Positions 2,600 to 29,196 of a stretch of 36,314 nt of DNA are shown piece by piece. The notes under the pieces are model-generated. The model searched no databases and was not told where the DNA came from. It saw only the letters and a list, made by a program, of their open reading frames with translations. Source of the stretch: a virus; IMG/VR virus record IMGVR_UViG_3300005468_000041, positions 1-36,314 of that record. One strand, 5' to 3'. Each line of letters begins with the position of its first letter. The first letter of the stretch is position 1. The position numbers and the translations under genes were made by a program.

Positions 2600-3100
2600 C
2601 TACGCGCCGCCGAGAAGCGGGACGTTGACCGCGGTCATCGGCTTTTCGCTGACGATGTAGTCGAACGTCGTCTCGATCATGTTGCCGTCGGCGAGGAAGA
2701 AGAAAATCCCCGGATCCCCGTCACCGTAGGAACCGTCGTCCTGCGCTCCATCCACCACCGCCTGGGAGCACTGGTAGTTCCCGGAGGTGCCGCCGCAGTC
2801 CCAGATGATGTCCTGTGTAGGCGTACGCTGCGACCCGCTGGAAGAGATCTTGCCCTTGGCCACGTAGTAGCCCATAGGCTGACCGAAGTTGTACAGGTAG
2901 ATGTACCGAACGGCGCTGCCGTTCTCCTCGCGCTTGCGCTTCTCCTCGAGGTTTTTCTTCTCGAGCGTGTCGCCCTGTGCCTTTTGGGCCTGTTGCTGGC
3001 TGCGGGCGATTGATTCTTCCGTCTGGCCAGTGCATGCCGTGAGGCCTAGTACGCCGACGATCGAGAATAGTGCTGCGAACTTCTTCCAGTTCTTGAGCAT
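2600..3100 (-). CDS. Lipoprotein
   Basis: From ATG 3100 (AGGA 6 nt upstream; the GTG at 3106 has no spacing from the ribosome site) the product has 166 residues. A lysine-containing n-region and hydrophobic core (FAALFSIVGVLG) lead to a lipobox, LTAC, predicting an acylated Cys near residue 23 and export to the outer face of the membrane. A Gln/Lys/Glu-rich, probably helical stretch follows (QQQAQKAQ ... EEKRKREE), then a folded domain beginning YIYLYNFGQPMGYYVAKGKI with two Cys residues. The start codon lies 1 nt beyond the stop of the upstream membrane protein. Phage lipoproteins of this kind often act in superinfection exclusion; that is inference. Confidence 0.8.
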   Translation of the reverse strand: MLKNWKKFAALFSIVGVLGLTACTGQTEESIARSQQQAQKAQGDTLEKKNLEEKRKREENGSAVRYIYLYNFGQPMGYYVAKGKISSSGSQRTPTQDIIWDCGGTSGNYQCSQAVVDGAQDDGSYGDGDPGIFFFLADGNMIETTFDYIVSEKPMTAVNVPLLGGA

Positions 3101-3102
3101 GA

Positions 3103-3579
3103 TCACTCCTTGCAGTCGGTTTCAGACTTGGTGGTGTCGATGACATCGGGCAGATCGGCGTCCTTGAAGTCCTTCTGCGAGAACTTGCGAGCCGCAGCGT
3201 TGTACGCACCCACCGCGTCGTTACAGATCATCTTCTGTCCGGTCAGCTCGGTCTTGAGCTTGACGCTGTCGGGCTGACCCTTAAGCGCTTCCGCCGTGAG
3301 AGTCAGGTTCTTGTCGGCCGTGAGGACCGCGTTCCACATGCCCTCGAAGCCCTCTTGTGCTCGGATACGATTGCGAGCATCGTTCTTGATGACCTCGGCG
3401 TCACCTCGACCCTTGATGTCGCTGGTGCCGACACCGAAGCCCCAGTGCGCGATGCCGATGCTGCCGAAGACGACGATCACCACGATGGTAAGAACACCGA
3501 GCCAACCGATGCCCTTGGCGGTCTGCCTGACCGGCTTGTATTCGAAGTCCTCTTCGCGATCGTCCCAACTCTTGGACAC
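3103..3579 (-). CDS. Single-pass membrane protein
   Basis: 158 residues. An acidic and aromatic N-terminus (SWDDREEDFEYKP) precedes one strong transmembrane segment, about residues 25-50 (GWLGVLTIVVIVVFGSIGIAHWGFG). A soluble helical domain follows, with NRIRAQEGFEGMWNAV, GQKMICNDAVGAYN and KDFKDADLPDVI, a pattern I associate with a conserved actinophage membrane protein of unknown function. The GTG start at 3579 has GAGGAG 5 nt upstream. It is coupled to the lipoprotein gene downstream, so both may form one envelope-associated module. Confidence 0.75.
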   Translation of the reverse strand: MSKSWDDREEDFEYKPVRQTAKGIGWLGVLTIVVIVVFGSIGIAHWGFGVGTSDIKGRGDAEVIKNDARNRIRAQEGFEGMWNAVLTADKNLTLTAEALKGQPDSVKLKTELTGQKMICNDAVGAYNAAARKFSQKDFKDADLPDVIDTTKSETDCKE

Positions 3580-4852: not shown

Positions 4853-4956
4853 AATGCGCGTTCAAGTTATCACTGATGACCGTCAGTGGTCTCGCACACG
4901 CACCGGGAGCGGTCACTCCCTAAGTTCATTCCTCGTTTTCTGACGAGGCGAACCTG

Positions 4957-5026
4957 TGGGCCCGGGAGGACTTGAACCTCCCACCTTCCCGTTGTCGAGA
5001 TGCTCATCCCTGTGAGCTACGGGCCC
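4957..5026 (-). ncRNA. tRNA-like element with a 4-nt anticodon loop
   Basis: Apart from the anticodon loop this is a textbook tRNA: acceptor GGGCCCG/CGGGCCC (7 bp), TA at 8-9, D-arm GCTC-ACAGGGAT-GAGC, variable region AGGTG, T-arm GGAGG-TTCAAGT-CCTCC, discriminator A. The anticodon arm is TCTCG-ACAA-CGGGA, a 5-bp stem closed by only 4 nt. The total length is 70 nt, three short at exactly this place. It cannot present a normal anticodon. The scaffold is so well kept that selection for a non-decoding role is worth considering. Confidence 0.7.
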
Positions 5027-8155: not shown

Positions 8156-8752
8156 CTAAATATTCCTGCGTGACTGACCGCAGTAGACTTGGCGACTTAC
8201 GTTATTAGGATCTGTCGCGGCGTAGCAATCAACCGTGTCTGCATAATCACGTGCACATCCAGGACACGTCACTTCAGTGTTGACGATGAACATATCTGTC
8301 TCGCCGCAAAATGCAGGCGTGCCACTTACACGAGGCTCGGCAGGCGTGCAGATGAGAACATCCTCGTAAGCACGCTTACAGCCAGGACACTTCGTTGACA
8401 CGCCGTCGTACGTGCCACTGGACATGCGATCCCGGTTCACCTGCTGCTTGGCCTGGTAGGCAGCCTGCCACTCTTCGTCGGTGATGCCGATGGCGGTGAG
8501 AATGTTGGCCAAAAAGTGGCCAACGTCAACTGCTTCCTTCAGCGCGAGTTCACGATTGACCCAACCGCGTGGTTGCGCCCAGGTCTTCCATCCAAATTCA
8601 CTGAGGAGTTCGCCAGCCTCAAGCACGAGTGCCGAGTGATTCCACGTCACATAATCAGCGAGTGCATCACCCTCAGGAAGCGGAAGTTTAAAGCCAAACG
8701 ACTTTTCCTGGAGTTCCTTCGTCGAAGCGAGCCACTCCCAATTGTCACTCAC
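8156..8752 (-). CDS. MazG/dimeric-dUTPase-like NTP pyrophosphohydrolase with two zinc knuckles (candidate dCTPase)
   Basis: From GTG 8752 (GAGGAGA upstream, overlapping the SIS gene stop in GTGAGTGA) the protein has 198 residues. The N-terminal ~110 residues are all-alpha with the pattern NHSALVLEAGELLSEFGWKTW (ExxELL, metal-binding acidic helix) and ALKEAVDVGHFLANIL (EAxDxxHF), the arrangement of dimeric dUTPases and the MazG/dCTPase superfamily. Two CPGC knuckles follow (TKCPGCKRAYEDV, VTCPGCARDYADT), each with further Cys. In T4 the functional equivalent gp56 hydrolyses dCTP and dUTP so that only modified cytosine is incorporated. The location among sugar and cytosine-modification genes makes dCTP removal the favoured role (inference). 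A plain dUTPase or house-cleaning MazG remains possible. Confidence 0.7.
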   Translation of the reverse strand: MSDNWEWLASTKELQEKSFGFKLPLPEGDALADYVTWNHSALVLEAGELLSEFGWKTWAQPRGWVNRELALKEAVDVGHFLANILTAIGITDEEWQAAYQAKQQVNRDRMSSGTYDGVSTKCPGCKRAYEDVLICTPAEPRVSGTPAFCGETDMFIVNTEVTCPGCARDYADTVDCYAATDPNNVSRQVYCGQSRRNI

Positions 8753-9338
8753 TTGCGATCTTCTCCTCGTACTTCTCGTGAAGCGTTCCACCTGGGTGAT
8801 AAGACCCAAGTTGTTCAGTGGTGAGTGCATCAGCGACATTACAGACGAGCGTGTTGAGGATCGCCAACTGGACCGCCACCGATACTGTAGGAATGGTTCC
8901 GTGCTTTGAACCATCCTCATCGATTTTGTACGTTAGTGCGATATTACACCGCTCAGCCAACTCACTTTGATGGTTACCCGTTACCGCTGCAGTGATGATG
9001 CTTCCATTACTGCTGTGCAATTCAGCAATGTGTTGTGCGTCAAGCACCTCCTCAGTCTGTCCAGAGTGGCTGATGAAGATAATGACGTTGCGATCAATCC
9101 GCGAGATCGTCCCGAGGCCACCGTGTAGAAAATCAGTGGTGTGGATTGCGGAAGCGTGGTAACCCACCGATTGCAAGAGTGACGCGCCTAGCTGCGCTAC
9201 TCCAAACGACTTACCAACACCAGTAAGTGTCACAACACCGGTGAGTTCGATGCGTTCACGAAGTTGCTTGACAACTTTATCATCGATATTGTACTCGAGC
9301 TGCCTAAGCGCATAAATCGTCTTGCTGATGACGTCCAC
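8745..9338 (-). CDS. kdsD-like: SIS-domain sugar-phosphate isomerase, KdsD/KpsF-like (candidate D-arabinose-5-phosphate isomerase)
   Basis: 197 residues forming one SIS domain: TGVGKS (39-44), LHGGLG (71-76, as LHGDLG in KdsD), SHSGQTEE (90-97, the phosphosugar-binding Ser/Thr loop) and C-terminal HPGG (181-184, the signature of KdsD/GutQ/KpsF). It lacks the CBS domains of E. coli KdsD, like known short Ara5P isomerases. The expected reaction is D-ribulose-5-P to D-arabinose-5-P. The GTG start at 9338 overlaps the stop of the nucleotidyltransferase gene (TAGTG) with AGGAG 10 nt upstream, so the two are translationally linked. There is no LPS/KDO context here, which points to the isomerase feeding a pentose into the adjacent nucleotidyltransferase and glycosyltransferase. 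A GmhA-like heptose role is the alternative; HPGG argues for KdsD. Confidence 0.8.
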   Translation of the reverse strand: MDVISKTIYALRQLEYNIDDKVVKQLRERIELTGVVTLTGVGKSFGVAQLGASLLQSVGYHASAIHTTDFLHGGLGTISRIDRNVIIFISHSGQTEEVLDAQHIAELHSSNGSIITAAVTGNHQSELAERCNIALTYKIDEDGSKHGTIPTVSVAVQLAILNTLVCNVADALTTEQLGSYHPGGTLHEKYEEKIASE

Positions 9339-10846
9339 TAGCCCACAATCTCCTTAATCAGTTGAACACCGCGTGAAATCATGACTTCACGTTCACGCGG
9401 ACTGTGGAGTGGTGCACCCGCGAGAAGAAGGCAACCTTCAGCGACTTGAAGCTGTTCAAGCGAAAAGTATCCCTCAAGAAACTCATCCATAGCTTTGATT
9501 TCATCAGCACGATCAGGCATCAGCACATTGTCATTATAGAACAAATTGTGTGTGATCGCTGAGAATCCGGCATGGTACGAGTACCGCAACTTCGCGATCT
9601 CATAGATCAGCGGCATGAACGGTGTGCCGCGTGGATCTACAAGCTTGCACGTACCTGTGTTGATGGAGTAAAGGATGTTGTTGAAGTTCAAATCACCGTG
9701 CGCACGCACCATTGATGCTGAGGTAAACACCTCACTTGCGCGCTCAAGCAAATCAAAATGACGCGTCGCGAGCGCGTGATCAAGAGTGGTGAGTCGCTCA
9801 AGTGCTTTACCTGCGAACCATGATGCCACCCGAACTGCACTTGCAACTTCGTTATAAGACTTGATTGACCACCATAGATCATGATCAAGACGGTCGGTCA
9901 CAGACTGGAGAATCTGGACCCACGTATCGGGCCTCCCAGGCCAGTAGAGCCACAGTTCTGAGAGCGTAGGTAGATCGACGTACTCCATCGCATACCCACC
10001 GTCGAGTACACTACCGAAGTACCTCGGAATGAGGTTTGCCGACCTGTCTCCCATGGCCGATTGCTCAATCAGCCAATTTCGCTGTGCTGCGAACTGCTCT
10101 CCAGTGCCTCTCTTCGTAATAATACCTGCATCATCTAGTGAAAGCGTGTGCTCAGACCGCGCGATGAATCGGGTTCGACGTGCAATTGCGAGAGCGTGCA
10201 CATCGCCAATGTCGAGCCACGTTGGAAACGCAATGGTTCTCGCAGTAGGGAAGCACGAGAGAAGTGGTCCCATGCCCACTTCATGCTCGTCGTTCAAGTT
10301 GGCGCGTGTCATTACCGTGCTGGCTTCACTGAGTAGCTCGATGGTGTCGGCAAAGTGGTATGCGCCAATGGTAACTGAATCCGCTACACGCACCTGCTTA
10401 TCGACATACGTGCCATCATCTTCGCGCACACAAAATGAACGACTACCAACTGGTGTAAGTGCTTCACCGATCCACGTTCCCGAGTGTCGATCAAGCTTTT
10501 CCTCGATGAATGTGTCACTCATCAGAACGTACGTGTCGTGCTTGTGACGCTCTGGGCCCAATGCGTGCAGGCCTACGAGGATTGCATCCACCGGACCACG
10601 TGAAACGTTTTGCGGTACGACCTTGATGTCGTAATGCCCAGCGCGCTCGAGTGCAGTCTGGACCTGGATGTGCGTGGCCGGATTTGCCACGACGATGATG
10701 CGCACGCAATTAGCGGCACGCATCAACTCGATTTGGTGAAAGAGGTGAGGACGTTGGCCGATGGAAACGAGTGCTTTGCTGATCTGTGTTGAGAGCGGTC
10801 CGAGACGTGATGCCTTACCGCCGGCGAGAATGATTCCGTTGCTCAC
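9338..10846 (-). CDS. Fused sugar nucleotidyltransferase and APH-type kinase
   Basis: 502 residues with two domains. Residues 1-~235 are a nucleotidyltransferase: GIILAGGKASRLGPLSTQISKAL (the GGxxxRLxPLT...K pyrophosphorylase signature), VLMSDT (metal-binding Asp), FPTWLDIGD near the domain end. Residues ~260-502 resemble aminoglycoside/choline kinases: AHGDLNFNNIL (catalytic loop, H383-D385) and LVDPRG (Mg-binding D404). This combination could phosphorylate C1 of a sugar phosphate and transfer a nucleotide to give an NDP-sugar, as the separate HddA/HddC enzymes do for heptose. With the Ara5P-isomerase-like neighbour, an NDP-arabinose is the natural guess. The GTG start at 10846 overlaps the glycosyltransferase stop (GTGA). 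Substrate and nucleotide are inferred. Confidence 0.78.
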   Translation of the reverse strand: MSNGIILAGGKASRLGPLSTQISKALVSIGQRPHLFHQIELMRAANCVRIIVVANPATHIQVQTALERAGHYDIKVVPQNVSRGPVDAILVGLHALGPERHKHDTYVLMSDTFIEEKLDRHSGTWIGEALTPVGSRSFCVREDDGTYVDKQVRVADSVTIGAYHFADTIELLSEASTVMTRANLNDEHEVGMGPLLSCFPTARTIAFPTWLDIGDVHALAIARRTRFIARSEHTLSLDDAGIITKRGTGEQFAAQRNWLIEQSAMGDRSANLIPRYFGSVLDGGYAMEYVDLPTLSELWLYWPGRPDTWVQILQSVTDRLDHDLWWSIKSYNEVASAVRVASWFAGKALERLTTLDHALATRHFDLLERASEVFTSASMVRAHGDLNFNNILYSINTGTCKLVDPRGTPFMPLIYEIAKLRYSYHAGFSAITHNLFYNDNVLMPDRADEIKAMDEFLEGYFSLEQLQVAEGCLLLAGAPLHSPREREVMISRGVQLIKEIVG

Positions 10847-12147
10847 AGATCGAGTCGCCTCTCAATGGTAGTGACACAACGCTGACGTTCGAGTTCACGC
10901 TTGAAGTGTTCGTACTGGACCCTCGCCAGCCACTCGTACGTGGAACGCGATGTCTTGACTGCCTGGACCTTACGTGCGAGATCAGCAGGATCTTTGATGC
11001 GAAGCCACTTGTGCAAGTTGACCATGTCATCTGAGTAACGATCACCGTTGGGGAACAGAATATGATCCTGCGTGTCATAGAGTGGGTGAAAGAAACAGAT
11101 GATGCCCGTGGCAAATGATTCCCATGGCTTTGCTGTCGCCCATCCTGATCCAGAGGATGGGGTGGTGAAGGTGCACTTTGTCGTCTGCATCAAGTTGAAG
11201 ATTTGGTTGTATGGGATTGGGTTGATTTCGGTGTTGAGCTTTGCTAGCGAGTCTTTCGACCAGGTGCCATGAACCCAAGAAGGTCCGAGTGGTCGAACGT
11301 AGTGTTCCATGGCATGGAGTCGAGTGAGTTCGGGTCGCATACCATAGTTGCGTGCCTCGTTGATGAGGATTCCGAAATCGTGATCTCGATCTTCCCACCC
11401 GGCTGGAGCTTCCTCACCAAATCCTCGAGGAATCCCGACGAGTTCGAGTCCGGATCCCACGTAAGTATCAGTCGTTCGCCACCGCTCTCCCATACCTTCG
11501 GCTCGTGCGTTAAACGTATCGAAACCGTGTTCTTGGGGAGTCCTAGTGTCGCCATAACGCTCATTCCACTCGTCACGGGTCCAGTCGAACTGGCACAACA
11601 CGGGATGACGCCGAGGCCACGCAAGATCACGAGACTTCAAGTAGTTGCGAGCATCAGGAAGAAGCCATACTTCCTCACGCTTTAGAGGATCAACATCACG
11701 CCACCGGTTGATTCCACGTGCAATGAACGACACGTACTCAACGAATGAGATTTGTGGGCTCGTGACGACGTTGCGGTTGTCCACCCTGGGAATGGGCGAG
11801 TTGCTTGTGCCGTGCTGTCCAAGCCAGAACACCATGCCATCGAGTGAATCGAACGTTGGGCCGGTGACACGGTCTAGCCGATCGATGCGATCTTGCAGTG
11901 ATGCCTTTGCGTGAGAGCGTGCTTCGGCTCGCCACTCTTGCCACGGATTCGTGATGTTAGGCATGTGTGGCGCCCAACCGGAGTTCTTTCCGACGACGAC
12001 GAATTCGACGTCAGGATTGCGAGTGGCTAGTTGCTCAAGTAGATACGGCGGCTCATTATCTCCACCGGATTCACCCCACTTTTTCGGGTTAATCTCAATG
12101 ACTCGTCCTAGCTTCCCATACCCAACACGCTTACGAAACGTAGGCAT
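10843..12147 (-). CDS. GT-B glycosyltransferase, candidate DNA (arabinosyl/pentosyl) transferase
   Basis: 434 residues from ATG 12147 (AAAGGAC 7 nt upstream; an in-frame TTG at 12177 lies before that ribosome site and is rejected). The start MPTFRKRVGYGKLGRVIEINPKKWG looks like a GT-B N-terminal beta-alpha unit. The middle has PDVEFVVVGKNSGW and GMVFWLGQHG. The C-terminal donor site reads TPSSGSGWATAKPWESFATGIICFFHP followed by a DPADLARKV helix, similar to GT4-type nucleotide-sugar-binding regions. It heads the operon GT - nucleotidyltransferase/kinase - SIS isomerase - MazG-like - C5 methyltransferase, with overlaps at each of the first junctions. Clustering with sugar activation and the dCMP-hydroxymethylase-like enzyme suggests it glycosylates hydroxymethylated (or hydroxylated) cytosine in DNA. 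It could alternatively glycosylate virion protein or host surface. Confidence 0.72.
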   Translation of the reverse strand: MPTFRKRVGYGKLGRVIEINPKKWGESGGDNEPPYLLEQLATRNPDVEFVVVGKNSGWAPHMPNITNPWQEWRAEARSHAKASLQDRIDRLDRVTGPTFDSLDGMVFWLGQHGTSNSPIPRVDNRNVVTSPQISFVEYVSFIARGINRWRDVDPLKREEVWLLPDARNYLKSRDLAWPRRHPVLCQFDWTRDEWNERYGDTRTPQEHGFDTFNARAEGMGERWRTTDTYVGSGLELVGIPRGFGEEAPAGWEDRDHDFGILINEARNYGMRPELTRLHAMEHYVRPLGPSWVHGTWSKDSLAKLNTEINPIPYNQIFNLMQTTKCTFTTPSSGSGWATAKPWESFATGIICFFHPLYDTQDHILFPNGDRYSDDMVNLHKWLRIKDPADLARKVQAVKTSRSTYEWLARVQYEHFKRELERQRCVTTIERRLDL

Positions 12148-12198
12148 ACAGTTCGTCCTTTCCGAATGATCTGTCAATTCCTCAACGCGCAGCGGGGC

Positions 12199-24894: not shown

Positions 24895-25884
24895 TTAAGA
24901 GGAATGCTTGCGCTGGACACGCAGCCAAACGAACGAACCAAGTCCAAGTGCGATCAGAAATCCTGCGATTCCCAGGTACGTACCAATTCCTGATGTTCCC
25001 GTGTTCGCAAGTCCAGAGGTAGAGCCAACCGGAACTACCGCGGGTGCTGTAGTTGACGTTGTAGCCGACGTAGAACTCTCGACAGACGTCGTAGACGTAG
25101 TACTGGTGGTTGTTACCGGGGTAGTTGTTGCGGCGGTAGTAGAGGAGGTTGTAGAGGTGGTCGTTGTCGTGGTGGTGGCCGGTGAAGTCGACGTGGTCGT
25201 TTCAGTTGGAGTGCACAGGCTGAAGTTCCAGACACTGTCATTGAACGTCAACGTCTTGAGAACGCCGCGTGCTTCGGTGCCAACACCCAATGTGCCGAGT
25301 GAAAAGCCGACTGCGACAACTTTAGCATCCGGGTCGAACCCGGCGAAATCAGCGAGCGTCCCGTCCACGTTCGTGTTCGTCGGTACGGTGATGTTCTCTG
25401 GACCATCGACCCATCGTGATGGCTTTGATGCCCACCAGATATCGCCATACGCACTGGGTTCACCGACGAGAATGCCATCGTAGCCATCATCGGGATCGGA
25501 AGGCGTGCGGTCAACGACGAGCTGGTAGCCCGGCTTTGCTGAGCCGACCGACTGCACGAAGTCCAGTGAGGCGATATCAACATCAGCGAGCAGAGTTGGC
25601 GTGACGGCCACATAGCCGGCAACCTTCCCGCCTGCTGGGGAGACTGTCGTCGGATCTTGTTGCGCACGCGGTCCTGTGATGTCAAGTATGAGACCGTCAG
25701 GCACGAAGTCCTGGACTCGCACCGGGGAGTGCGCACGTGATTCGGTGAACTTCCACGTACCGTCGATCTTACACACGCCACTCGGCACCGAGTCAGTGAC
25801 TTGTGCTTCGGCGGTTGGTGAGCACAGGATCACCGGCACGAGCGATATGATGCCAATGATGCCGGCTGCGATGAGCTTACGCAT
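24895..25884 (-). CDS. Secreted cell-wall-anchored surface protein with LAxTG sortase motif
   Basis: 329 residues. N-terminal signal peptide MRKLIAAGIIGIISLVPVIL with a likely AEA cleavage site near 28. A globular beta-rich domain (about 32-220) begins GVCKIDGTWKFTESRAH and contains two Cys. A ~70-residue Thr/Ser stalk (runs of TTT/TST, 222-280) leads to LANTG (292-296), a hydrophobic helix (YLGIAGFLIALGLGSFVWL) and a basic tail RVQRKHSS. LAxTG is the recognition motif of class E sortases of high-GC Gram-positive bacteria, so the host would attach this protein to its own wall. A phage-made wall protein could block adsorption of competitors (superinfection exclusion) or change host adhesion. 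ATG 25884 has a distant AAGGG. Confidence 0.85.
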   Translation of the reverse strand: MRKLIAAGIIGIISLVPVILCSPTAEAQVTDSVPSGVCKIDGTWKFTESRAHSPVRVQDFVPDGLILDITGPRAQQDPTTVSPAGGKVAGYVAVTPTLLADVDIASLDFVQSVGSAKPGYQLVVDRTPSDPDDGYDGILVGEPSAYGDIWWASKPSRWVDGPENITVPTNTNVDGTLADFAGFDPDAKVVAVGFSLGTLGVGTEARGVLKTLTFNDSVWNFSLCTPTETTTSTSPATTTTTTTSTTSSTTAATTTPVTTTSTTSTTSVESSTSATTSTTAPAVVPVGSTSGLANTGTSGIGTYLGIAGFLIALGLGSFVWLRVQRKHSS

Positions 25885-25900
25885 GCTTGATGTTGCCCTT

Positions 25901-26218
25901 CTAGTCGGGGAACTTCATGGCAGCTATGGTGTCCTGCCATTCACGCTCGAGTGTTTTCCAGTTTGCCTGGATCGTGACGATGGGAGTTGTGAGGTGATTG
26001 TGCTGGAGCTCGAATCCGTACTTCACAGCATCAGTCAAGTACGCGATCTCAAGCACAGTCAGCGCACCGTCATAACCTACGCCCGTTGCCTGCGCTGCGA
26101 CGCAACCCCAAGGATTCAACATGCGAATTCGAGCCGGGTCGATTCGGGAGAGCCAAACATCACGGCCAAGCTTCTCGTCGAGCAGATCGAGTCCGTTCTG
26201 AATCTCTACCTCGTACAC
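25901..26218 (-). CDS. Small conserved phage protein
   Basis: 105 residues from GTG 26218 with AGGAG upstream. It contains GLDLLDEKLGRDVWLSRIDPARIRMLNPWGCVAAQATG and ILEIAYLTDAVKYGFELQHNH, then TIQANWKTLEREWQDTIAAMK. The DPxxIxMxxPxxCVxxQ... pattern is shared with small proteins of unknown function in many actinophages. No membrane segment. It lies between a two-helix membrane protein and the wall-anchored protein. Confidence 0.7.
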   Translation of the reverse strand: MYEVEIQNGLDLLDEKLGRDVWLSRIDPARIRMLNPWGCVAAQATGVGYDGALTVLEIAYLTDAVKYGFELQHNHLTTPIVTIQANWKTLEREWQDTIAAMKFPD

Positions 26219-26256
26219 TGTATCTCTCCTCAGTTCCGCGGGTCTCGGGTTGAGAA

Positions 26257-26451
26257 TTAATTGGGCGATGTCACCAAGTTTACCAAGATGATACCGCCCA
26301 GTGAGATGAGAAACACGGCGAGTGGAATGATCACCGACTTTGTGCTCTTGAGTTGTGTCAGCGCTGCCACTGAGAGAAGAGCCGACGCGAGTGCGAAGAG
26401 AGTTAGGATGATAAAGATCACCCAGAGTGATGTCTGGTTGAGTGCGGACAC
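26257..26451 (-). CDS. Two-helix membrane protein
   Basis: 64 residues from GTG 26451 (AAGG 9 nt upstream; GTG 26460 has no spacing from it and overlaps the RtcB gene). Two transmembrane helices, LWVIFIILTLFALASALLSVAAL and VIIPLAVFLISLGGIILVNLV, joined by TQLKSTKS. It resembles holin-like or small accessory membrane proteins, but without a nearby endolysin I do not call it a holin. It follows the RtcB stop by 1 nt. Confidence 0.65.
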   Translation of the reverse strand: MSALNQTSLWVIFIILTLFALASALLSVAALTQLKSTKSVIIPLAVFLISLGGIILVNLVTSPN

Positions 26452-26452
26452 G

Positions 26453-27631
26453 TTAGTCACCCTTCACATTGAGAATCTGGTGAAGCGTGTGCTTGATGGT
26501 GACAAGATCAATCGAGTCGGCCATCACGACGTCGATGTCCTTGTACGCACCGGGGATTTCATCGACGAACGCTGCACTGTCGCGGTACTCGATGCCCTTC
26601 ATTGCTTCACGCAGGTCGTCATGCGTGAACATCTTTCGCGCAGTGGAACGCGAGAAGTTGCGCCCAGCGCCATGAGGTGAAGAGTCAAGGGACATGTAGT
26701 TACCCTTGCCCTGGACCACATACGATGCTGTCCCCATGGAACCAGGGATGAGACCCATCTTTCCCGCGGTGGCATCGATGGCGCCCTTGCGCGACAGCCA
26801 CACCTGCTTGCCGAAATGCTTCGCGGATGTGGTGTAGTTATGATGGCAGTTGATGGTCTCTTGCACCTCGATTGATTCGCCTGACCACTCCTCGACGCAC
26901 AGCATGAGACGATCCATCATTTCTTCGCGATTGAACCACGCAAACTCCTGGGCCCATCGCATTTCACGGATGTACGCCCAGAACTCCTTATCACCTTCGA
27001 CGAGGTATGCAAGATCCGGGTTGGGTAGGTTGATCCAACGCTTCTCACACTGCTGTGCCGCAATCTTGATGTGTCGCTGCGCGATCTTGTTGCCAACACC
27101 ACGTGAGCCCGAGTGGAGAAAGAGCCACACGCGATCCATTTCGTCGATGGTGATCTCGATGAAGTGATTGCCACCACCGAGTGTGCCGAGCTGAAGCTTC
27201 CAATTCGATGCATATGCGTCTGGATCGAACTCAGCTGACTCGAGAGCCTTCATCTCGAGGATGTCCGTGCGTAGCTTGGCGGTGTTGGTGAGTTGCGTGT
27301 TGTACTTACCGGCTGAGGTCGGGATGGTCGCTTCGATCAGTTCGCGAAGCGCCGTAAGAGACTTCTCGGATTCCGTGAAGTCATGTTTGGTGAATTGTGT
27401 ACGCACTGCGATCATGCCGCAGCCGATATCCACGCCGACCGCCGCGGGCATGATGGCACCGAGAGTTGGGATAACACTGCCGACGGTGCTTCCACGCCCA
27501 AGATGCGCATCAGGCATGAGAGCGACGTGTGGAAAGATGAACGGCATCGTTGAAGTCTGCTCGGCCTGCTTGCGTGTCTGGTCTTCGAGAATGGACGCGA
27601 AGTTGACGAGCTTATCGTTGATCTGTTCCAC
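26453..27631 (-). CDS. rtcB: RtcB-type RNA ligase
   Basis: 392 residues covering the whole RtcB family: MPDAHLGRGSTVGSVIPT, AVGVDIGCGM (metal-binding C71), GTLGGGNHFIEI, HSGSRGVGN, NCHHNY, LIPGSMGT-SYVV and SPHGAGRNFSR (the His that takes GMP). The enzyme joins RNA 3'-phosphate or 2',3'-cyclic-phosphate ends to 5'-OH ends using GTP and Mn2+. These are exactly the ends left by anticodon nucleases and many toxin RNases. In a phage with its own tRNAs it probably repairs tRNAs cut by host defence (inference). GTG 27631 has AGGAG 9 nt upstream. No archease partner is visible. Confidence 0.95.
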   Translation of the reverse strand: MEQINDKLVNFASILEDQTRKQAEQTSTMPFIFPHVALMPDAHLGRGSTVGSVIPTLGAIMPAAVGVDIGCGMIAVRTQFTKHDFTESEKSLTALRELIEATIPTSAGKYNTQLTNTAKLRTDILEMKALESAEFDPDAYASNWKLQLGTLGGGNHFIEITIDEMDRVWLFLHSGSRGVGNKIAQRHIKIAAQQCEKRWINLPNPDLAYLVEGDKEFWAYIREMRWAQEFAWFNREEMMDRLMLCVEEWSGESIEVQETINCHHNYTTSAKHFGKQVWLSRKGAIDATAGKMGLIPGSMGTASYVVQGKGNYMSLDSSPHGAGRNFSRSTARKMFTHDDLREAMKGIEYRDSAAFVDEIPGAYKDIDVVMADSIDLVTIKHTLHQILNVKGD

Positions 27632-28842: not shown

Positions 28843-29196
28843 TTACTTGCAGAAATACTTGTCTGCCGTTTCGTACATGACACGCGCTTGGATTTCGGTG
28901 TAACTGTTGATGAGACCCGAGATGATGCTGTCACGTGAGATGCCCGCTTCACGCTGCTGACACGTCAACTTACCGATTGCGATGACTGAACTTTCTTCAA
29001 GATCAGTGTCCGCGTCAGCGCCGAGAACTGGTTGAACGTCGGACAAGTACGCTCGTTCTTTCGCGGTATAAGAACGATTGGTGTCTGTCTTCGTAGGCGT
29101 GCATGCGGTGAGGGATAGGATGACACCTACGCCTGCGAGAAGAATGACGATGAGTGCTGCAATCTGGATCATCTGATGACGGTAGTTTTTGTCCAT
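28843..29196 (-). CDS. DUF732-like lipoprotein
   Basis: 117 residues. A hydrophobic signal (IQIAALIVILLAGVGVILSLTAC) ends in the lipobox LTAC, predicting a lipidated Cys. The mature part (RAYLSDVQPVLGADADTDLEESSVIAIGKLTCQQREAGISRDSIISGLINSYTEI ... ADKYFC) has the two conserved Cys and the four-helix layout of DUF732 proteins, otherwise known from mycobacteria and relatives and their phages. It is the first leftward gene from the divergent control region. A surface role such as superinfection exclusion is plausible. ATG 29196; the best ribosome site (AGGAAAG) is rather distant. Confidence 0.75.
   Translation of the reverse strand: MDKNYRHQMIQIAALIVILLAGVGVILSLTACTPTKTDTNRSYTAKERAYLSDVQPVLGADADTDLEESSVIAIGKLTCQQREAGISRDSIISGLINSYTEIQARVMYETADKYFCK

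What the first reader, a model, noticed from the sequence alone, without database searches (positions are those of the whole stretch)
24895..25884. Phage gene for a sortase-E-anchored wall protein
Signal peptide, folded domain, long Thr/Ser stalk, LANTG, membrane helix and basic tail form a complete wall-anchoring design. It is expressed from the early/middle-type block rather than among virion genes, so it probably decorates the infected cell, for example to mask receptors against other phages.
Basis: partly seen in the sequence, partly recalled or inferred. Interest (0 to 1): 0.7.

Follow-up and report, generated by a model that had tools for sequence, protein, structure and literature searches.

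The report
Phage-encoded sortase-anchored cell-wall surface protein
A virus of actinobacteria carries a gene for a protein built to be exported and, by prediction, bolted onto its host's cell wall by the host's own enzyme; relatives with the same anchor occur in many Microbacterium phages but had only been labelled 'membrane' or 'hypothetical' protein (in a few cases 'glycosyltransferase').

Summary
The ORF at 24895-25884 (minus strand, 329 aa) has a signal peptide, a folded domain, a 63-residue Thr/Ser stalk, LANTG, a membrane helix and a basic tail. A 95% identical ortholog on another contig shows purifying selection (dN/dS about 0.09; domain 0.025). The domain recurs in Microbacterium phages (Megan, Nicole72, Gina, Teamocil), three other viral contigs and rare actinobacterial secreted proteins. 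Every viral lineage read in full keeps a sorting signal (LANTG, LAQTG, LAATG or LPVTG; in one it lies behind an in-frame TAG). About 90 Microbacterium phage records match these proteins; nine read in full, several with unrelated ectodomains, all end in LA[QA]TG. The domain is a beta-sandwich resembling carbohydrate-binding modules, at borderline significance. The gene lies among replication and metabolism genes; the record holds no sortase, but 126 of 149 genomes of one actinobacterial order carry class E sortase. Best reading: host class E sortase displays a lectin-like protein on infected cells. Receptor masking or superinfection exclusion is the most likely purpose but is inference. Prophage precedents exist (SasX on phiSPbeta-like prophages), so this is a new variant, not a new kind.

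The parts
24895..25884 (-). predicted wall-anchored surface protein, 329 aa
   Evidence: ORF; purifying selection against L005 ortholog; homologs in phages and bacteria
25804..25884 (-). signal peptide, residues 1-27
   Evidence: hydropathy and A-x-A at 25-27; not tested with SignalP
25210..25803 (-). folded ectodomain, residues 28-225, beta-sandwich
   Evidence: AlphaFold2 pTM 0.69 for the window copy, pLDDT 92.8 and pTM 0.89 for bacterial homolog L012; CBM-like matches, Z up to 8.1
25021..25209 (-). Thr/Ser-rich stalk, residues 226-288
   Evidence: 70% T/S, 22 codon types
24997..25011 (-). LANTG sorting motif, residues 292-296
   Evidence: same place in homologs
24922..24987 (-). hydrophobic helix, residues 300-321
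   Evidence: mean KD above 1.6
24898..24921 (-). basic tail RVQRKHSS, residues 322-329
25896..25902 (-). Shine-Dalgarno-like AGAAGGG, conserved in L005
24113..24850 (-). downstream neighbour, DUF7873 protein
   Evidence: Pfam E 2.6e-76
25901..26218 (-). upstream neighbour, 105 aa, unknown
   Evidence: kept in L005
26257..26460 (-). 67-aa protein with two predicted membrane helices; weak holin-like match (PHROG E 0.016)
   Evidence: kept in L005
26453..27631 (-). RtcB RNA ligase, same strand
   Evidence: Pfam E 2.1e-115

Best explanation
The phage makes a secreted protein that the host's class E sortase cuts at LAN-T|G and links to the cell wall, so that infected cells display a beta-sandwich, probably sugar-binding head on a Thr/Ser stalk. 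The stalk may be O-mannosylated by the host. The head most likely binds wall glycan or surface polysaccharide and hinders adsorption of further phages. Shown by sequence: the anatomy, selection, conservation of the sorting signal across viral lineages, the non-virion neighbourhood, and no sortase in this (possibly partial) record. Inferred: cleavage by the host sortase (about 85%), sugar binding by the head (about 50%), and superinfection exclusion or receptor masking as the purpose (about 35-40%).
For: Complete sorting signal unique in the window. Anchor kept while ectodomain and stalk diverge: LANTG window and L005, LAQTG Megan, Nicole72 and Gina, LAATG L006, LPVTG L041. Domain homologs in secreted actinobacterial proteins, two of which also end in LAETG. 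Class E sortase above cut-off in 126 of 149 genomes of one actinobacterial order; no sortase in the record. LAxTG is the class E signal (PMC5148588). Fold nearest to CBM families 11, 30 and 16. Neighbours are replication and metabolism genes. Two further predicted lipoproteins in the same record suggest a wider envelope programme. Phage surface lipoproteins that exclude superinfection are known (Ltp, PMC3952083).
Against: CBM similarity is borderline (Foldseek best E 3.7e-3, no match at 1e-3; VIA Z at most 8.1) and a shared fold shows no function. Host unnamed, so its sortase was not checked. The NCBIfam LPXTG_anchor model does not match the window protein. No expression or adsorption data exist. 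The best studied prophage precedent, SasX, is described for colonisation, immune evasion and virulence, not for exclusion.
Confidence: 0.42

Rival explanations
1. Surface adhesin: the anchored head makes infected or lysogenic cells stick to each other or to surfaces, as in lysogenic conversion, and thereby spreads the phage.
For: SasX precedent: prophage-borne LPXTG surface protein with colonisation roles (PMC5088179). One domain homolog, L039, sits near an integrase. Lectin-like fold.
Against: No integrase found in this window or annotated in the stretches of Megan and Gina that were read, so display would be brief there.
Confidence: 0.22
2. Debris decoy blocker: the protein caps receptor glycans so that progeny do not re-adsorb to walls of lysed cells.
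For: Same anatomy; carbohydrate-binding-like head on a wall anchor. In Megan and L041 the gene lies close to endolysin genes.
Against: Nothing here separates it from exclusion of incoming phages; in the window no endolysin was found nearby.
Confidence: 0.15
3. Wall modifier: the head binds or alters wall polymers to tune lysis timing or wall integrity during infection.
For: Fold also resembles GH12 and GH11 enzymes; a small membrane protein with a weak holin-like match lies two genes upstream.
Against: Fold matches are weak; no Pfam enzyme family matches; catalytic residues were not examined.
Confidence: 0.12
4. Virion component: the protein decorates the phage particle.
For: CBM-like jelly rolls are common on phage tails (own knowledge); VIA matches include viral turret and tail-spike domains.
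Against: Signal peptide and sorting signal point to export and wall linkage. In Megan and Gina the gene is outside the head-tail block.
Confidence: 0.04

Closest known systems
Microbacterium phage proteins Megan gp43, Nicole72 gp44, Gina gp86 (unnamed family)
   Same: signal peptide, homologous domain (profile E 2.9e-49), LAQTG, helix, basic tail
   Different: 31-35% overall identity; no Thr/Ser-only stalk; extra domain in Megan and Nicole72
Sortase-anchored secreted proteins of actinobacteria with the same domain (loci L027/L050, L049)
   Same: domain plus LAETG sorting signal
   Different: in bacterial genomes; short linker or many extra domains; most other bacterial homologs lack an anchor
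SasX/SesI of phiSPbeta-like staphylococcal prophages
   Same: phage-carried gene for a protein with signal peptide and LPXTG anchor (PMC5088179)
   Different: LPXTG rather than LAxTG; temperate phage; sequence relation not tested
Superinfection-exclusion lipoproteins of the Ltp type
   Same: phage-encoded protein displayed outside the host membrane (PMC3952083)
   Different: lipid-tethered, blocks DNA injection, expressed from the lysogeny module
Carbohydrate-binding modules CBM11, CBM30, CBM16
   Same: predicted beta-sandwich arrangement (Z 6-8)
   Different: no significant sequence match; ligand unknown

Membership tests
Sortase-anchored wall protein | N-terminal signal peptide | tested here: met
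   hydropathy and A-x-A site; SignalP not available
Sortase-anchored wall protein | C-terminal LPXTG-like motif, hydrophobic helix and basic tail in order | tested here: met
Sortase-anchored wall protein | covalent linkage to the wall by a sortase | not testable with these tools
   needs experiment
Sortase-anchored wall protein | match to NCBIfam LPXTG_anchor model | tested here: inconclusive
   no match for the window protein; Nicole72 homolog below cut-off at 13.8 bits
Class E sortase substrate | LAxTG motif | tested here: met
   LANTG; class E specificity PMC5148588
Class E sortase substrate | class E sortase in the host | tested here: inconclusive
   host unnamed; 126 of 149 genomes of one actinobacterial order have it
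Superinfection-exclusion protein | blocks adsorption or DNA entry of other phages | not testable with these tools
   needs adsorption assay
Carbohydrate-binding module | significant similarity to a CBM family | tested here: inconclusive
   no Pfam CBM match among 9 domain members; structural Z up to 8.1 to CBM11
Virion structural protein | gene inside the head-tail block | tested here: not met
   neighbours are replication and metabolism genes; outside the head-tail block in Megan and Gina

The most novel reading that the evidence does not exclude
Actinobacteriophages, including ones with no annotated integrase, carry a widespread, unrecognised class of surface coats: exported proteins that hijack host class E sortase, with exchangeable ectodomains on a conserved LAxTG anchor, used to re-dress infected cells against competing phages.
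Probability: 0.33. Interest if true: 0.72.

Novelty: new variant of a known kind. Interest (0 to 1): 0.5.

Why it matters
If the anchor works as predicted, many cultured Microbacterium phages offer a directly testable system in which a phage uses a host sortase to change the wall surface of the infected cell. That would add a wall-linked class to the known membrane-tethered exclusion proteins, and would give a function to proteins now annotated only as membrane or hypothetical proteins.

Tried and rejected
Pfam, PHROGs and NCBIfam gave no family above threshold for the window protein. PDB sequence searches gave nothing significant. First genome-contig scan with the single protein found no relative; the alignment query found four. 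The antisense ORF 24908-25483 is a mirror of the gene and was rejected: homologs and dN/dS support the minus-strand frame. Artefact by DNA repeat slippage in the stalk rejected by codon variety. Lipoprotein reading rejected (no lipobox residue before Cys21). A tree of 21 domains could not resolve whether phages acquired the domain once or several times. Searches for papers on LAxTG or sortase-anchored proteins of Microbacterium phages found none in the open-access library searched. The DUF7873 neighbour is not next to a wall protein in the two phages looked at.

Full report
Observation. The ORF at 24895-25884 on the minus strand encodes 329 residues. It starts with a hydrophobic segment ending in AEA|Q, and ends with LANTG (292-296), a hydrophobic helix (300-321) and RVQRKHSS. 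Between them lie a domain of about 200 residues and a 63-residue stalk that is 70% Thr/Ser and uses 22 codons. Among 165 ORFs of the window it alone has a sorting signal, and shuffled ORFs give none. The window is a 36,314-base IMG/VR virus record classed as linear, hence perhaps a fragment.

The gene is real. A second contig, L005, keeps the same gene order and a 95% identical protein. Over the whole gene dN is 0.024 and dS 0.27; over the domain dN is 0.007. The sorting signal and the ribosome-binding-like site are kept.

Surroundings. The gene lies on the minus strand after RtcB, a 67-aa two-helix protein and a 105-aa protein, and before a DUF7873 protein. The rest of the record encodes DNA polymerase, primase, helicase, exonuclease, thymidylate synthase, dCMP deaminase, methyltransferase, WhiB-like protein, nucleotide kinases and sugar enzymes; none of the proteins scanned had a head or tail protein as its best match. 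Polymerase and primase hits point to phages of actinobacteria.

Relatives. tblastn found Microbacterium phages Megan, Nicole72, Gina and Teamocil; profile comparison with Megan gp43 gives E 2.9e-49. Alignment queries added viral contigs L006, L039 and L041 and bacterial loci in Cellulomonas, Geodermatophilus, Klenkia and Nocardioides; 11 of 297 genomes of one order had the domain. Of the viral lineages, window and L005 end in LANTG, Megan, Nicole72 and Gina in LAQTG, L006 in LAATG, L041 in LPVTG. In L039 the LPVTG signal lies in frame behind a TAG. Among bacterial homologs most lack an anchor; L027 and L049 end in LAETG. A tree could not settle the number of transfers between bacteria and phages.

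A wider class. The Nicole72 protein matches 44 phage records and the Gina C-terminus 55, all Microbacterium, about 90 different records with RefSeq duplicates included. I read nine in full (Megan, Nicole72, Gina, Jayden, Quhwah, Krampus, Leaf, Mercedes, Magritte): all have a signal-like N-terminus and LA[QA]TG, helix and basic tail, but several carry ectodomains without evident similarity to the window domain. Gina gp86 lies in the slot just before the sigma-factor, ParB-like and glycosyltransferase genes, as Quhwah gp85 does, with a different head; this suggests head exchange on a kept anchor. Their annotations read membrane protein, hypothetical protein, or glycosyltransferase (Quhwah, Paschalis).

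Fold. The window domain alone is predicted with moderate confidence (pTM 0.69); bacterial homolog L012 with high confidence (pLDDT 92.8). Both are beta-sandwiches. Best solved matches are CBM11 (Z 8.1, 3.7 A over 138 residues) and other CBMs, with viral turret and tail-spike domains at similar Z; Foldseek finds nothing at E 0.001. This suggests, but does not show, sugar binding.

Anchoring. LAxTG is the signal of class E sortases of soil and freshwater actinobacteria (PMC5148588). The record has no sortase, and 126 of 149 genomes of one actinobacterial order have a class E sortase above cut-off. The host itself is unnamed.

Function. Display on the infected cell follows from the anatomy if the host sortase acts. 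Receptor masking is my leading purpose, at 35-40%, by analogy with surface lipoproteins that exclude superinfection (PMC3952083) and because two more predicted lipoproteins sit in the record. Adhesion as for SasX (PMC5088179), debris capping and wall modification remain open. No integrase was annotated in the parts of Megan (1-50000) and Gina (3405-53066) that I read; that is consistent with, but does not prove, a lytic life. Actinobacterial O-mannosylation could modify the stalk (abstracts), which is inference.

Verdict. The anatomy is confirmed, anchoring is likely, the purpose is open. Phage-borne sortase substrates are known from staphylococcal prophages, so I call this a new variant of a known kind. 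The unremarked breadth across Microbacterium phages is the part of most interest; the literature check covered only the open-access library.

Noticed in passing
window 2600-3106 minus: Predicted lipoprotein (FSIVGVLGLTAC lipobox) of unknown function.
   Followed up: partly
window 28843-29196 minus: Predicted lipoprotein (lipobox LTAC) with a weak DUF732 match (E 1.7e-4, just under the cut-off).
   Followed up: partly
window 8745-12177 minus: Sugar block: isomerase-like, nucleotidyl transferase and glycosyltransferase-like genes; target of the sugar unknown.
   Followed up: no
window 4956-5026 minus: tRNA-like gene for which ARAGORN reports a two-base anticodon.
   Followed up: no
L039 6541-6543: In-frame TAG between the domain and an otherwise complete LPVTG sorting signal in a contig with an integrase.
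   Followed up: partly
window 26151-27401 against L005: RtcB region is more diverged from L005 (about 76-90% per 250 bases, RtcB dS 0.90) than the wall-protein region (about 90-94%), suggesting mosaic exchange.
   Followed up: partly
L042 1804-3129 (Quhwah gp85): Annotated as glycosyltransferase but reads as a signal peptide plus LAQTG-anchored protein; probably misannotated.
   Followed up: partly
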